Origin: Aquificales bacterium
GTDB lineage: Bacteria; Aquificota; Aquificia; Aquificales; Aquificaceae
DNA length: 41,920 nucleotides
Assembly: GCA_027037055.1 (NCBI GenBank)
Contig: JALWBR010000004.1
Span: forward strand, 1 to 41,920
Reading direction: 5' to 3'
A program made the position numbers and the translations under genes. The notes beneath the pieces were generated by a model. The model was not told the origin of the DNA and searched no databases. It worked only from the letters and a program-made list of their open reading frames with translations. Shown in pieces: positions 24,696 through 30,880 of this stretch. Every line of letters starts with the position of its first letter. The stretch's first letter is position 1.

Positions 24696-24721
24696 GATTT
24701 TTGAAGCTACTTGATAGAAGT

Positions 24722-24749
24722 TTGACAACCACCTACGAAGGAATATAAT
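24722..24749 (+). promoter_or_regulatory. Consensus leaderless promoter, copy 1
   Basis: TTGACA (24722-24727), 16 bp, TATAAT (24744-24749): a full consensus promoter whose -10 ends 6 nt before ATG 24756, so the predicted +1 is the start codon. The same box with nearly identical spacer recurs at 26611-26638 and 27895-27922. Confidence 0.8.
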
Positions 24750-24755
24750 TAAAGC

Positions 24756-25154
24756 ATGCTTGAAAGGGCTAAAGGACTTGTAAAAAAGGTAACCCTTGAA
24801 GTAGTCTATGAGGTTGTTGATGAAAGAACAAAAGAAATATTGGAAGTTATTAAAAAAATAGAGGAAAGGCAAGAAGAAGATTTCAGATACCTTAACCAAA
24901 AAATAGACACACAGATAGGTCAGGTAAGAAACGAAATGGGACAGTTAAGGCAGGAAATAGGACAGCTGAGACAGGAAATGACTCAAATGAGAGAAGAGTT
25001 TAAGTCAGAAATACATAGACTGGATGAGAAAATTGATAGAATGAATCAGGAATTCAAATCGGAAATCCAAAGGTTGGATGAGAAGATTGACAGAATGAAC
25101 CAAAGAATTGACACAGTTATACAGATGCTCTCGGAAATTTTGAGATCAAAATAA
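24756..25154 (+). CDS. Coiled-coil protein of a three-member repeat family, copy 1
   Basis: A 132-residue cytoplasmic protein, predicted as one long helix, of unknown function. The N-terminal 45 residues (MLERAKGLVKKVTLEVVYEV, then an acidic helix) are amphipathic and almost invariant in the three copies. Next come heptads of the form GQLRQE(I/M), two here, then an 18-residue block EFKSEIHRLDEKIDRMNQ that is duplicated only in this copy, and a conserved end RIDTVIQMLSEILRSK. No signal peptide or membrane span. It has no Shine-Dalgarno and is driven by a perfect promoter ending 6 nt before the ATG. It lies beside dnaG and converges on a secreted-protein gene. Confidence 0.85.
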   Translation: MLERAKGLVKKVTLEVVYEVVDERTKEILEVIKKIEERQEEDFRYLNQKIDTQIGQVRNEMGQLRQEIGQLRQEMTQMREEFKSEIHRLDEKIDRMNQEFKSEIQRLDEKIDRMNQRIDTVIQMLSEILRSK

Positions 25155-25173
25155 GCCCGCCGGGGGCGGGCTT
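25153..25173. terminator. GC-rich terminator hairpin between copy 1 and the secreted gene
   Basis: A 9-bp stem (AAGCCCGCC, 25153-25161, with GGCGGGCTT, 25165-25173) and a 3-nt loop overlaps the coiled-coil stop codon. On the minus strand it is followed by ATTTTG, so it is best suited to end the leftward secreted-protein transcript. A closely similar hairpin follows copy 2. Confidence 0.7.
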
Positions 25174-25181
25174 GGAAAAGG

Positions 25182-26288
25182 TTAGGGGCAATCGCCCAGG
25201 CTTCCTATGGTAGATTTAGCACCCCACTTTACGTTGAATGCACTGTCATCAGGTATATTACATCCACGTCCACCGCTGATTGTGGACCAGGAATCTCCAG
25301 CTGTGTTATTATAGCCACCGCCGACAAAGGAGATATAGCCAGAAGCTGTGTTGCTGTAGCCACCGCTGACAGAAGAGTAATCGCCAGAAGCCGTGTTGCC
25401 TGCGCCACCGCTGACTGATGAGTAACTGCCAGAAGCCGTGTTGCCTGAGCCACCGCTGACTGATGAGTCGATGCCAGAAGCTGTGTTGTTCCTTCCACCG
25501 CTGACGGAAGAATATTGCCCAGAACTTATATTGTCCCAACCACCCATCACTACAGCAAACTCCCTTGATATGACATTCCCGAATCCCGCCACTATACCGC
25601 CATAGGATGAATACGCATTCTGGTCTCCCACTATAAGATTGTGTGAACCAGTCTTAAAGTTTCTACCCCATGTACCACCGTTATTTATACAGTCTGCATC
25701 ATTATTCCAATACTGACCGAGAGAACAGGTAAGTCTTAGGGCGGTATCTTGCCTCGGTGCATTGTACCCTATAATAAGATTCCCGAGACCGTTTACCTGA
25801 TTTGTCTGTCCTGTGCCGTTAACAATTTGAAGGTTCACACCCTCAAAGGTTATCAGTGCACCGCTGTTTGCATTGGGATCGGGTGTTGTTACTTGAATAT
25901 ATGCATCCATTGCCATAACATTACTGCTTTCAATTGCACCGACTCTTGAATCAATGTTACCTACATCAGTTTGGAGCTGCGCAATTGTATTTTGAAGTTG
26001 GGTAATAGTATTTTGAAATTGTGTAACCTGCTGTTGTAATTGCTGGACTTGTTGCTGGAGTTGTTGATTTTGCTGTTGCAACTGCTGGACTAAATTTTCC
26101 AGATTCTGAATCCTGCTATTGTTGTCATTTACCGCATCCCTAACAGCATTAAAATTGGCATTAACCTCACTCGCCTTCGCCTTAGTATTGGGCTGGAAGG
26201 TATGGGGAAGATTAACTTCACCCGCAAATACAGATATTGTAAGCATAAAACTTCCGAAAAGTCCACAGATTAAGTTATGATTCCTCAT
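25182..26288 (-). CDS. Secreted protein with coiled-coil stalk and YadA-like head repeats
   Basis: A 368-residue exported protein. Signal peptide to about residue 22 (ISVFA), then a cap domain beginning GEVNLPHTFQPNTKAKAS (about 23-62) shared with the protein at 27000-27773. A Gln-rich coiled coil follows (about 60-120), then a beta region (about 128-245) and six 15-residue repeats at 249-338 of the form GGxxNTASGxYSSVS, which resemble left-handed beta-roll heads of trimeric adhesins. The C-terminal YadA membrane anchor is missing, so it is either released or held by another protein. Four Cys lie in the beta region and tail. GGGAGG/GAGGAG precede the ATG. It follows a small lipoprotein gene by 24 bp and is probably co-transcribed with it. 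Confidence 0.82.
   Translation of the reverse strand: MRNHNLICGLFGSFMLTISVFAGEVNLPHTFQPNTKAKASEVNANFNAVRDAVNDNNSRIQNLENLVQQLQQQNQQLQQQVQQLQQQVTQFQNTITQLQNTIAQLQTDVGNIDSRVGAIESSNVMAMDAYIQVTTPDPNANSGALITFEGVNLQIVNGTGQTNQVNGLGNLIIGYNAPRQDTALRLTCSLGQYWNNDADCINNGGTWGRNFKTGSHNLIVGDQNAYSSYGGIVAGFGNVISREFAVVMGGWDNISSGQYSSVSGGRNNTASGIDSSVSGGSGNTASGSYSSVSGGAGNTASGDYSSVSGGYSNTASGYISFVGGGYNNTAGDSWSTISGGRGCNIPDDSAFNVKWGAKSTIGSLGDCP
25275..25544 (-). repeat. Six tandem 45-bp coding repeats (15-residue beta-roll units)
   Basis: Codons for residues 249-338 of the secreted protein. Each 45-bp unit encodes GG-x2-NTASG-x2-SSVS or a close variant; the middle units are most alike and the outer ones more diverged. 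This is a substrate for slippage or recombination that would change head length without changing frame. Confidence 0.85.
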
Positions 26289-26312
26289 CTCCTCATACCT
26301 CCCTTAAGGTTT

Positions 26313-26489
26313 TTACTCAGCCCACTTGCCCTTGTCCCACTCCATTTGATCCCACATATTGGAATAGGCAGGATCTTTACCGCCTCCCCCTTGCTTATCA
26401 CCCCCTCCTTTACCACCTCCCCCGCAACTTACACCTAATAATGTAACAGCAAATAAAAATGTAAGGGTAAATAGACCGAAATGCCTCAT
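26313..26489 (-). CDS. Small probable lipoprotein
   Basis: A 58-residue exported peptide. A hydrophobic signal (MRHFGLFTLTFLFAVTLLGV) leads to SCGGGG, a lipobox-like Cys although the -3 residue is atypical. The mature part is a Gly/Lys linker followed by an aromatic, charged end (MWDQMEWDKGKWAE). Its leader (signal region, ribosome binding site and 155 bp upstream) is nearly identical to that of the gene at 27000-27773. ATG 26489 has GGGAGG 9 nt upstream; a TTG three codons earlier sits directly against GGAGG and is unlikely. It precedes the YadA-like gene and might anchor or chaperone it, which is inference. Confidence 0.65.
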   Translation of the reverse strand: MRHFGLFTLTFLFAVTLLGVSCGGGGKGGGDKQGGGGKDPAYSNMWDQMEWDKGKWAE

Positions 26490-26514
26490 GGTACCCAACC
26501 TCCCGAGTTTTTTA

Positions 26515-26575
26515 GGGATAGGTGCTGTTCAGGAAAGTCGGTATATCTCCGTCTTTCCATCCCAGAACCTGTCCC
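26515..26575 (-). ncRNA. Candidate structured 5' UTR element, copy A
   Basis: Read as leftward RNA, the element forms one long imperfect hairpin. A 9-nt arm GGGACAGGT pairs with ACCTATCCC (one C-A mismatch), then 3 bp CTG/CAG, a 4x4 purine-rich internal loop, 6 bp GGAAAG/CTTTCC, an A-A mismatch, 3 bp CGG/CCG and a 7-nt loop. It ends 10 nt before the GGGAGG ribosome binding site. The distal ACCTATCCC strand could instead pair with GGGAGG, so the two folds may switch translation. No known riboswitch class matched by eye. Confidence 0.5.
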
Positions 26576-26610
26576 GATTTACTATTTTAACCTAAAACCT
26601 TTTACCAGGT

Positions 26611-26638
26611 TTGACAACCACTTACGAAGAAATATAAT
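26611..26638 (+). promoter_or_regulatory. Consensus leaderless promoter, copy 2
   Basis: TTGACA (26611-26616), 16 bp, TATAAT (26633-26638), ending 6 nt before ATG 26645. Spacer nearly identical to the other two copies. Confidence 0.8.
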
Positions 26639-26644
26639 TAAAAC

Positions 26645-26968
26645 ATGCTTGAAAGGGCTAAAGGGCTCGTAAAAAAGGTAACCCTTGAAGTAGTATATGA
26701 AGTCGTTGATGAAAGAACAAAGGAAATACTGGAAGTTGTCAAAGAAATAGAAAAAAGACAAAATGAAGACTTCAGATATCTAAACCAAAAAATAGACACT
26801 CAGATAGGTCAGGTAAGAAACGAAATGGGACAGTTAAGGCAGGAAATAACTCAAATGAGAGAGGAGTTTAAAGCAGAAATACATAGATTGGATGAGAAGA
26901 TTGACAGAATGAACCAAAGAATTGACACGGTTATACAAATGCTCTCGGAAATTTTGAGATCAAAATAA
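26645..26968 (+). CDS. Coiled-coil protein of a three-member repeat family, copy 2
   Basis: A 107-residue paralogue of the protein at 24756-25154 and the shortest of the three. It has a single LRQEI-type heptad between the conserved N-terminal 60 residues and the TQMREEFKAEIHRLDEKIDR block, and no 18-residue duplication. Most substitutions in the N-terminal part are conservative (KEIEKRQNED here, KKIEERQEED elsewhere). It is divergent from the lipoprotein/adhesin-like pair across the 155-bp duplicated region and convergent with the secreted gene at 27000. Its stop overlaps a GC-rich hairpin. Function unknown. Confidence 0.85.
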   Translation: MLERAKGLVKKVTLEVVYEVVDERTKEILEVVKEIEKRQNEDFRYLNQKIDTQIGQVRNEMGQLRQEITQMREEFKAEIHRLDEKIDRMNQRIDTVIQMLSEILRSK

Positions 26969-26985
26969 GCCCGCCGGGGGCGGGC
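26969..26985. terminator. GC-rich terminator hairpin after copy 2
   Basis: GCCCGCC (26969-26975) and GGCGGGC (26979-26985) with a 3-nt loop. On the minus strand it is followed by TTATTTTG, so it fits termination of the leftward gene ending at 27000. It is the homologue of the hairpin at 25153-25173. Confidence 0.65.
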
Positions 26986-26999
26986 AGTGGAACCCAAGA

Positions 27000-27773
27000 T
27001 CAAGGACTTGAATAGGTAGGATCATATTCATATATTACGATGACACGGTATACTCTCAAATTAGTACCCTCATTATCAGAGTTGAAACCAGCCCTTATAA
27101 AATAAGAACTCCCTTCTACGATAGGTAAGCCATTAGGGGTAAAATCACCTTGAAGAGTTTGATCACCACCGTCATTAGTAGTGCCAATGTTATGAAGTTC
27201 CCTGTTAGCAGGAAAAGGCGGTTCTCTGACAAGGGTTATGGAAATATTTCCAGTATTAGTATTATCATGAGCGTGGACAATTACCTTAAGTATACTTGAA
27301 CCCTCCGGAAGTACAATGGGACAAAAAACCGAGTTGTAGTTGGAAGCACCATCCTTATCTTCAAGATACATTGCATATACATTAACCGAAGGACTTAGCT
27401 GAAGAACATTTATAACAGGCAATGACCGTGCAGGTTGATAAACAGCGGCAAAACAACTTGCCGGATATGTAACAGATAGTATCTTAATATCCTTATTCAT
27501 ATCCTCACACTGCGGAGTCCCATTATTTGTAAAGCCAATCACCGCCTCTCCCCATTGACACGAACTCCCAGCTATGTTTCCCCTGAAGTTTTCCAGACTC
27601 TGTATCCTGCTGTTGTTGTCATTCACCGCATCCCTAACAGCATTAAAATTAGCATTAACCTCGCTCGCCTTTGCTTTGGTGTTCGGCTGAAAAGTATGGG
27701 GAAGGTTAACTTCACCCGCTATCAGAGGCACAGAAAAAACCAGCAAGAGGATGAATACAAAAAAATACCTCAT
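27000..27773 (-). CDS. Secreted protein sharing an N-terminal cap with the YadA-like protein but with a different C-terminal domain
   Basis: A 257-residue exported protein. Signal peptide (MRYFFVFILLLVFSVPLIA), then the same 43-residue cap as the protein at 25182-26288 (GEVNLPHTFQPNTKAKAS onward, one visible substitution), then a sharp change to an unrelated part with no coiled coil. That part starts with a Cys-containing linker (SSCQWGEAVIGFTNNG) and continues as a mainly beta domain ending VYRVIVIYEYDPTYSSP. I do not recognise the C-terminal domain. ATG 27773 is chosen because GGGAGG lies 9 nt upstream. It is preceded by the second copy of the structured leader. Confidence 0.78.
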   Translation of the reverse strand: MRYFFVFILLLVFSVPLIAGEVNLPHTFQPNTKAKASEVNANFNAVRDAVNDNNSRIQSLENFRGNIAGSSCQWGEAVIGFTNNGTPQCEDMNKDIKILSVTYPASCFAAVYQPARSLPVINVLQLSPSVNVYAMYLEDKDGASNYNSVFCPIVLPEGSSILKVIVHAHDNTNTGNISITLVREPPFPANRELHNIGTTNDGGDQTLQGDFTPNGLPIVEGSSYFIRAGFNSDNEGTNLRVYRVIVIYEYDPTYSSP

Positions 27774-27798
27774 GGTACCCAACCTCCCGAGTTTTTTA

Positions 27799-27859
27799 GG
27801 GATAGGTGCTGTTCAGGAAAGTCGGTGTCCTTCCGTCTTCCCCTCCCAGAACCTGTCCC
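27799..27859 (-). ncRNA. Candidate structured 5' UTR element, copy B
   Basis: The same 61-nt fold as at 26515-26575. Compared with copy A, the 6-bp stem changes from GGAAAG/CTTTCC to GGGAAG/CTTTCC on the minus strand (A-U to G-U, pairing kept), the 7-nt loop changes fully and the 9-nt outer stem is unchanged. On the plus strand the stem change would break a pair, which favours the RNA being the leader of the leftward secreted gene, although the outer stem pairs slightly better on the plus strand. Confidence 0.5.
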
Positions 27860-27894
27860 GAACTGCTATTTTAACCCAAAACCTCCTCGCATGT

Positions 27895-27922
27895 TTGACA
27901 ACCACTTACGAAGGAATATAAT
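27895..27922 (+). promoter_or_regulatory. Consensus leaderless promoter, copy 3
   Basis: TTGACA (27895-27900), 16 bp, TATAAT (27917-27922), ending 6 nt before ATG 27929. Same arrangement as copies 1 and 2. Confidence 0.8.
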
Positions 27923-27928
27923 TAAAGC

Positions 27929-28294
27929 ATGCTTGAAAGGGCTAAAGGACTTGTAAAGAAGGTAACCCTTGAAGTAGTTTATGAAGTCGTTGATGAAAGA
28001 ACAAAAGAAATATTGGAAGTTATTAAAAAAATAGAGGAAAGGCAAGAAGAAGACTTCAGATATCTAAACCAGAAAATAGATACCCAGATAGGTCAGGTAA
28101 GAAACGAGATGGGACAATTGAGACAAGAGATAGGACAGCTAAGACAGGAAATAGGACAGCTGAGACAGGAAATGACTCAGATGAGAGAGGAGTTTAAAAC
28201 TGAAATACATAGGTTAGATGAAAAAATTGACAGAATGAACCAAAGAATTGACACGGTTATACAAATGCTCTCGGAAATTTTGAGATCAAAATGA
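27929..28294 (+). CDS. Coiled-coil protein of a three-member repeat family, copy 3
   Basis: A 121-residue paralogue of the proteins at 24756 and 26645. It has three GQLRQE(I/M) heptads and a single EFKTEIHRLDEKIDRMNQ block. Its length exceeds copy 2 by exactly 14 residues, two heptads. The N-terminal codons are nearly identical at DNA level to copy 1, pointing to recent duplication or gene conversion. The gene ends with TGA instead of TAA, and the GC-rich hairpin that follows the other two copies is degenerate here (GCCCGTTGAG). Function unknown. Confidence 0.85.
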   Translation: MLERAKGLVKKVTLEVVYEVVDERTKEILEVIKKIEERQEEDFRYLNQKIDTQIGQVRNEMGQLRQEIGQLRQEIGQLRQEMTQMREEFKTEIHRLDEKIDRMNQRIDTVIQMLSEILRSK

Positions 28295-29888: not shown

Positions 29889-30485
29889 TTGAGTTTGACT
29901 TTCAGTAAGCCCGAATTAATAATAAAAAATCCTTTCAAACTGAGTGAAGGCTGGCGCGGAGTAATCTACACCGGCGAGTATAGAGGCAAGAAAGTTTCGC
30001 TTAAAATAGCCAAGAGTTTGGAGAATATTGAGGCAATAAACAAAGAAGCAAGAATATTGGAAGCACTCAAAGGGAAAAAGGAATTTCCGCAAATTTTAGA
30101 AAGGGGCAACGGGTACTTTGTTTATGAATTTATAGAAGGTGTACCCTTCAGGAATGTAAAGGATAAAAAGGTTATTAAAGAGGTACTAAAAAGGCTCGTA
30201 GATATAGCCCGCTTTCTTGATATATCAGGTATAAATCACGGTGAACTTAACAATATAGAAAAGAATGTCCTGGTGAATATAAAAGACACCAACATAAGTG
30301 TTTATTTGCTTGATTTTGACAGAGGGAGTTTTTCAAAGAAAACACACAATGTAAGCCAACTTATTCAAGTATTAAGAAGATACGGAATTTTATCTCTTGA
30401 GGAAGCGATTAAATTTGGCAAGGAATACTTTAAAGAACCGGAAAAGGTGGTTAAAGAATTAAAATATTTAATTGAAAAATGGTAA
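29889..30485 (+). CDS. Small protein-kinase-fold protein (COG2112/RIO-like)
   Basis: A 198-residue minimal kinase fold. A Gly-rich start (SEGWRGVIYTGEYRGKKVSL), the ATP lysine in LKIAK, the helix-C Glu in INKEARIL, a hinge region YFVYEFIEGVPF, a catalytic-loop equivalent NHGELNN-x4-NVLV and a metal-binding LLDFDRG in place of DFG. The catalytic Asp of HRD/HGD is Glu here, so activity is uncertain. Archaeal and Aquificales proteins of this type are annotated as predicted Ser/Thr kinases. The start is TTG 29889, or TTG 29895. It overlaps yjbQ by 7 bp, implying co-translation. Confidence 0.75.
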   Translation: MSLTFSKPELIIKNPFKLSEGWRGVIYTGEYRGKKVSLKIAKSLENIEAINKEARILEALKGKKEFPQILERGNGYFVYEFIEGVPFRNVKDKKVIKEVLKRLVDIARFLDISGINHGELNNIEKNVLVNIKDTNISVYLLDFDRGSFSKKTHNVSQLIQVLRRYGILSLEEAIKFGKEYFKEPEKVVKELKYLIEKW

Positions 30486-30880
30486 AGGTTGAAACTATAT
30501 ATGTTGAAACCGGTGGAAGGACAGATTTCATTGACATCACAGGAAAGGTAAGGGACATAGTAAGGTCATCCGGAAAAAGGGAAGGTTTGTGCGTAGTTTA
30601 TGTACCCCATACCACTGCAGCACTCTTTATTAACGAGGGTGCGGATCCCGATGTAGCAAGAGACATAGCAACCTTAATTGACAAGCTCATCCCTTGGCAC
30701 CATGCGGACTACAGACATGCAGAAGGCAACTCCGCAGCACACATAAAAAGCGCCATCATAGGCAACTCAAGGGTAATACCCATCGTTGAAGGCAAATTAA
30801 CCCTCGGAACCTGGGAATCCATCTTCTTCGCAGAATTTGACGGCCCCAGAAGAAGGAAGGTTATAGTTACGGTGATATGA
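30479..30880 (+). CDS. yjbQ: YjbQ family protein (UPF0047)
   Basis: A 133-residue YjbQ-type protein with the family signature VVYVPHTTAALFINEGADPDV, the WHHADYRHAEGNSAAHIKS block containing conserved His residues, and the end GTWESIFFAEFDGPRRRKV. E. coli YjbQ has weak thiamine-phosphate synthase activity, but its physiological role is unsettled. The gene begins inside the kinase-like gene's last codons and ends 2 bp from convergent ychF. Confidence 0.92.
   Translation: MVKVETIYVETGGRTDFIDITGKVRDIVRSSGKREGLCVVYVPHTTAALFINEGADPDVARDIATLIDKLIPWHHADYRHAEGNSAAHIKSAIIGNSRVIPIVEGKLTLGTWESIFFAEFDGPRRRKVIVTVI

What the first reader, a model, noticed from the sequence alone, without database searches (positions are those of the whole stretch)
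24719..28294. Cassette array: a duplicated divergent module pairing secreted proteins of variable C-terminus with a conserved coiled-coil protein
Three coiled-coil genes (24756, 26645, 27929; all rightward) alternate with leftward secreted-protein genes. Each coiled-coil gene has the same consensus promoter; two intergenic regions have identical 155-bp length and high identity; two of three coiled-coil genes end in the same GC hairpin. The secreted genes keep signal, leader and a 43-residue cap but exchange everything after it (coiled coil plus beta-roll, or an unrelated beta domain). Conserved control plus variable surface domain is the layout of antigenic or adhesin diversification systems, but the obligatory cytosolic coiled-coil partner is unlike those I know. 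The functional link is inference.
Basis: partly seen in the sequence, partly recalled or inferred. Interest (0 to 1): 0.87.

Follow-up and report, generated by a model that had tools for sequence, protein, structure and literature searches.

The report
Surface-fibre genes beside roaming coiled-coil gene
In a heat-loving vent bacterium, genes for secreted fibre proteins with one shared base and swappable tips alternate with copies of a small rod-shaped protein gene; the rod gene proves to be an independent, widely scattered gene rather than a fixed partner, while a tiny lipoprotein is the fibre's most consistent neighbour.

Summary
A second array lies elsewhere in the genome, and the 155-bp divergent spacer recurs at exactly that length in 5 of 5 modules. 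(1) The coiled-coil (CC) gene is not an obligatory partner: 49 of 59 CC genes examined have no secreted gene within 3 kb; they are scattered solitary genes in Aquificota (30 of 136 genomes), Kryptonia, Brocadia, Nitrospirota and Elusimicrobia. Pairing is confined to one genus plus one MAG of another. (3) S looks like a modular fibre: phage-tail-fibre-like cap, coiled coil, exchangeable tip (UspA1-type beta-roll, beta-sandwich, PASTA, another). (4) Five dissimilar leaders before L/S all fold into one stable 5' hairpin. (5) One whole CC-L-S unit differs between close relatives and CC genes are mosaics, so the CC repeat is the likely recombination substrate. The function of CC stays unknown.

The parts
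24722..24749 (+). CC1 promoter: -35 TTGACA 24722-24727, -10 TATAAT 24744-24749, 6 nt before the ATG (predicts a leaderless mRNA)
   Evidence: sequence; compared with all CC copies
24756..25154 (+). CC1, cytosolic coiled-coil rod protein, 132 aa
25153..25173 (.). GC-rich hairpin shared by the convergent CC1 and S1 (AAGCCCGCC..GGGCGGGCTT), likely two-way terminator
25182..26288 (-). S1, secreted fibre: signal, cap (26094-26222), coiled coil, beta-roll of 15-residue repeats (about 25299-25524)
26313..26489 (-).
26490..26644 (.). 155-bp divergent spacer 1: L1/S1 promoter (-10 TAAAAT 26584-26589), 5' hairpin leader (hairpin 26515-26575) and the CC2 promoter
26645..26968 (+). CC2, 107 aa, followed by the GC-rich hairpin
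27000..27773 (-). S2, secreted protein with the same cap (27588-27716) and an unrelated beta-sandwich tip; no L before it
27774..27928 (.). 155-bp divergent spacer 2 with the same promoters and hairpin leader (hairpin about 27799-27859)
27929..28294 (+). CC3, 121 aa, without the GC-rich hairpin

Best explanation
The locus is a composite tandem array of two independent gene families. Unit A is a surface-fibre unit: a promoter, a stable 5' hairpin leader, a small lipoprotein L (sometimes absent) and a secreted fibre S with a constant N-terminal cap and an exchangeable C-terminal tip. Unit B is the CC gene, a self-contained gene, in the arrays probably leaderless, for a cytosolic helical rod; it is spread widely as solitary copies. 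In one lineage A and B became interleaved. Because CC genes and their terminators are long direct repeats, homologous recombination between them can duplicate, insert and exchange whole units. S is probably exported, forms a fibre through its coiled coil and is held at the cell surface by its cap, possibly docked on L, while its tip binds a ligand or a surface. Shown: gene structure, L-S pairing, tip exchange, dispersal of CC, a whole-unit difference between relatives, mosaic CC genes. Inferred: export, trimer, anchoring by L, leaderless translation, adhesion, and that recombination at CC made the unit difference.
For: CC mostly solitary and widely dispersed. L found only directly upstream of S, 7 of 7, also where CC is absent. 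Cap constant, tips unrelated: UspA1-type beta-roll E 3e-15, beta-sandwich, PASTA, another in G018. Cap motif at the start of tail-fibre-like phage proteins. A 1984-bp block equal to one terminator-CC-spacer-L-S unit is present in G000 and absent in G061. A 134-nt exact match between CC5 and a CC gene of another genus inside otherwise about 80% identical DNA. Five dissimilar leaders, each one stable hairpin, z -2.9 to -5.2.
Against: No experiment. Six of 13 S genes lack their own L, and G059 has an S but no L found in its fragmented assembly. CC-L-S or CC-S is kept together across genus g1 and in G008, so a local functional link is not excluded. The S2 model is of low confidence (pLDDT 60). Relatives are MAGs, so neighbours may be cut off at contig ends, and the G008 contig could be mis-binned.
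Confidence: 0.65

Rival explanations
1. One reading: CC is a dedicated cytosolic partner (chaperone or regulator) of the S proteins, and divergent CC-S is one functional module.
For: Spacer length fixed at 155 bp in 5 of 5 modules; S and CC side by side in every genus-g1 array and in G008; all six Aquificaceae genomes with S also have CC somewhere.
Against: 49 of 59 CC genes have no S within 3 kb; CC in many genomes without any S; G076 has L-S and no CC; G018 S has no CC beside it.
Confidence: 0.15
2. Ordinary local duplication: the array is a by-product of tandem duplication and drift of a surface-protein gene that happened to lie beside a CC gene, with no role for recombination at CC and no selection for tip exchange.
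For: Tandem duplication is seen directly (S gene pair on C12); few genomes carry the arrays.
Against: Caps and leaders are conserved while tips are replaced wholesale; the same L-S plan with further tips recurs in other genera; a 134-nt identical tract between genera.
Confidence: 0.15
3. CC is itself a mobile element (a non-autonomous insertion that carries its own promoter), and its presence next to S is an insertion event.
For: Multi-copy dispersal at unrelated sites in many genera and several phyla; a short remnant in G009 and copies with internal stops.
Against: Strong purifying selection on the protein; many sites are shared between genomes, for example beside the same porin-like gene in G010, G011, G012, G016, G021 and G023, so these copies are inherited; none found in viral contigs; no element boundary or transposase was identified.
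Confidence: 0.05

Closest known systems
Trimeric autotransporter adhesins (UspA1, BpaC, YadA; PMC2942831, PMC9543794)
   Same: S1 has a left-handed beta-roll that matches the UspA1 head (E 3e-15) and a coiled coil; modular, repeat number varies.
   Different: No C-terminal membrane anchor; the order is cap, coiled coil, beta-roll at the C-terminus, the reverse of an autotransporter.
Phage tail fibres with the N-terminal F-x-N-T-x-A-x-x-x-E-V-N-x-N-F motif
   Same: Same N-terminal motif and same order of conserved base and variable tip; coiled coil resembles tail needle gp26.
   Different: S has a signal sequence, lies in no phage region and stands behind a lipoprotein gene.
Cassette-type surface diversification (antigenic variation)
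   Same: Constant N-terminus, exchangeable remainder, repeats that can recombine.
   Different: No silent donor store or single expression site seen; the copies are complete genes.
5' stem-loop leaders that stabilise mRNAs of abundant outer-membrane proteins (ompA type; from general knowledge)
   Same: A stable hairpin near the predicted 5' end, then a short single strand and a Shine-Dalgarno sequence.
   Different: The hairpin keeps its place but not its sequence between genera; no Rfam match; stability was not measured.

Membership tests
Trimeric autotransporter adhesin | Left-handed parallel beta-roll head | tested here: met
   S1 residues 256-341 against UspA1, E 3e-15
Trimeric autotransporter adhesin | C-terminal YadA-type membrane anchor | tested here: not met
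   Among the 25 Pfam matches shown for S1 there is no anchor domain, and the protein ends shortly after the beta-roll
Trimeric autotransporter adhesin | Homotrimer | not testable with these tools
   needs biochemistry
Phage tail fibre | N-terminal motif shared with tail-fibre-like phage proteins | tested here: met
   51 relatives of the cap in viral contigs, several in tail-gene neighbourhoods
Phage tail fibre | Lies in a tail gene cluster | tested here: not met
   neighbours are dnaG, CC, L and Memo
Obligatory CC-S two-gene module | CC genes regularly adjacent to S genes in relatives | tested here: not met
   10 of 59 CC genes have an S gene within 3 kb, all in genus g1 and G008
Obligatory CC-S two-gene module | S genes always with CC in the genome | tested here: not met
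   G076 has L-S but no CC match
L-S unit | L found only directly upstream of S | tested here: met
   7 of 7 strong L matches in 136 genomes
Antigenic variation by silent cassettes | Promoterless or partial donor copies of S | tested here: not met
   all cap matches in the genome lie in long open frames
Known coiled-coil family (Pfam, NCBIfam, PHROGs, PADLOC) | Match above the curated cut-off | tested here: not met
   only weak, generic coiled-coil matches

The most novel reading that the evidence does not exclude
L-S is an uncharacterised way of displaying fibres: a secreted fibre with a phage-tail-fibre-type cap docks on the tryptophan-rich tail of a tiny lipoprotein, so that tips can be swapped freely; and CC is an undescribed, horizontally spread family of cytosolic rods whose repeated genes drive the reassortment of the fibre units.
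Probability: 0.25. Interest if true: 0.75.

Novelty: new variant of a known kind. Interest (0 to 1): 0.5.

Why it matters
If right, it defines a compact surface-fibre unit (hairpin leader, lipoprotein, capped fibre with exchangeable tip) without an autotransporter anchor, linking phage tail-fibre architecture to surface proteins of deeply branching thermophiles. It also exposes a family of rod proteins, absent from the family libraries searched, that crosses phyla and whose function is open and testable. And it shows how repeats of an otherwise independent gene could carry fibre units between loci.

Tried and rejected
Rfam: only chance snoRNA scores. Pfam, NCBIfam, PHROGs and PADLOC for CC: only generic coiled-coil matches. 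CC in viral contigs: none. Signal plus cap in phage records and L plus cap in plasmids: none; the cap alone was found in IMG/VR. The 107-nt leader DNA finds only the arrays; other matches are of chance length. Empty site for the C4 array: the flanking genes were not found in G059 or G060, so not testable. L matches from about E 1e-5 upwards are signal-peptide matches, mostly to long proteins, and were discarded. Leaderless start as a family-wide rule: 11 of 11 array copies but 10 of 33 dispersed copies, against 40 of 297 control genes, so it is claimed for the arrays only. Fold search for S2: best matches are assorted jelly rolls, carbohydrate-binding modules and tail fibres with TM below 0.56, too weak to name. 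A covariance model of the leader was not built because the leader classes differ too much in sequence to align. Literature searches gave general background only.

Full report
What is there. The window is a whole contig (C4) of a 1.67-Mb genome in 54 contigs. Repeats of 172-300 nt at 85-91% identity tie the copies together. The two divergent spacers are 155 bp; the same spacer is exactly 155 bp in the second array of this genome and twice in G061. Its leader part is more conserved (96%) than its CC-promoter part (83%).

A second array. On contig C12 (L020) the same genome holds two beta-sandwich S genes, CC4, L, a beta-roll S and CC5. G061, of the same genus, has the C4-type array on its contig C100 and, at the C12 site, a single CC and a single S. 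Aligning the two C12 sites shows in G000 a 1984-bp block, L020 6906-8889, that is one terminator-CC-spacer-L-S unit, and a tandem duplication of the beta-sandwich S gene. A whole unit has therefore been gained or lost between CC/terminator repeats; the direction is not proven.

The coiled-coil gene is not an obligatory partner. Of 64 Aquificaceae genomes 22 have CC genes, up to nine matches per genome, scattered between housekeeping genes. With a profile, 30 of 136 Aquificota genomes have one. Named records add Hydrogenothermaceae, Kryptonium thompsonii, Brocadia, Nitrospirota and an Elusimicrobia bin, all solitary. Of 59 CC genes examined, 10 lie within 3 kb of an S gene, all in genus g1 or in G008; the CC gene of G059, split between two contigs, would make one more. 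CC has a conserved N-terminal stretch (KKVTLExIYEVVDERT), a variable number of heptad-type repeats and a conserved end. The model is one helix of 119 residues, pLDDT 94. It is a real protein: dN/dS is about 0.02-0.11 among copies. In all array copies the -10 box lies a few nucleotides before the start codon, which predicts a leaderless mRNA; outside the arrays this signature is only moderately enriched.

The regular neighbour of S is L. A profile of L gives seven strong matches in the phylum (E 5.5e-13 or better), two in G000 and one each in G061, G008, G018, G019 and G076, every one directly upstream of an S gene. G076, in another family, has L-S and no CC. Six of 13 S genes lack their own L (C4 S2, both beta-sandwich S genes on C12, G061 S2, G061 C164, G059); in G000 and G061 an L exists elsewhere in the genome. 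L has a lipobox-like cysteine, a glycine-rich linker and a W-x-Q/E-M-x-W-D-x-G-x-W tail.

S is a modular protein of fibre type. The cap is constant (24 of 43 positions invariant over eight sequences) and DNA similarity stops right behind it. Tips: a beta-roll that matches UspA1 at E 3e-15 with a coiled coil before it; a beta-sandwich in S2 and relatives; helices plus PASTA domains in G076; another, unassigned, in G018. The cap motif also starts proteins in phage tail-gene neighbourhoods in IMG/VR. The order cap, stalk, tip is that of a tail fibre and the reverse of a trimeric autotransporter; no anchor domain was found. Export, trimer and surface display are inferences.

The leader. Upstream of L or S, five leader classes (array type, C12_Sa type, G008, G019, G018) are only 48-62% identical in pairwise alignment, yet each folds into one hairpin of about 60 nt followed by a short linker and a Shine-Dalgarno sequence; z-scores are -2.9 to -5.2. 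This suggests a selected 5' structure, perhaps for mRNA stability (inference). The second S of the C12 pair lies behind the first and has no such leader.

Recombination. In G008, a MAG of another genus, a CC-L-S-CC module of lower GC (mostly 0.42-0.54, against about 0.6 around it) sits at a different locus. One of its CC genes shares a 134-nt exact stretch with CC5 of G000, while the first 50 nt are 39/50 and the upstream 40 nt 32/40 identical. Synonymous divergence between other array copies and G008 copies exceeds 1. Recent transfer and recombination inside CC genes explain this best.

Mechanism and limits. The best-supported reading is a composite array in which an independent CC gene supplies the homology for shuffling fibre units. 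What CC does is not known, and a role for S inside genus g1 is not excluded. Most relatives are fragmented MAGs, so missing neighbours are less certain at contig ends, and the G008 module could come from a mis-binned contig. Membership: S1 carries a trimeric-autotransporter head but fails the anchor test, and S shares its cap with tail fibres but not their gene context; it is therefore filed under neither.

Noticed in passing
L181:184-672: A distant CC homologue lies inside a ribosomal-protein operon, just before what looks like the rplK-rplA genes of an Aquificaceae MAG.
   Followed up: no
L174:4001-4192, L175:2911-3102, L176:4001-4192: Nitrospirota carry a minimal 63-aa CC homologue, divergent from an ABC-type exporter gene cluster in three MAGs; it shows the shortest form of the family.
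   Followed up: partly
L087:8899-9583 and L075:6881-7553: Tandem pairs of CC genes between the same two genes (a small secreted protein and a porin-like protein) in two genomes, one copy following the other within a few bases.
   Followed up: no
L020:4861-5337: A c-type-haem-like secreted protein gene stands directly beside the second array and is conserved there in G059.
   Followed up: no
window:29889-30485: A small kinase-like protein gene stands next to a gene of the YjbQ type (30479-30880); not examined.
   Followed up: no
L245 / G076:C4: An L-S pair in another family in which S carries two PASTA domains, a tip type not seen in the arrays.
   Followed up: partly
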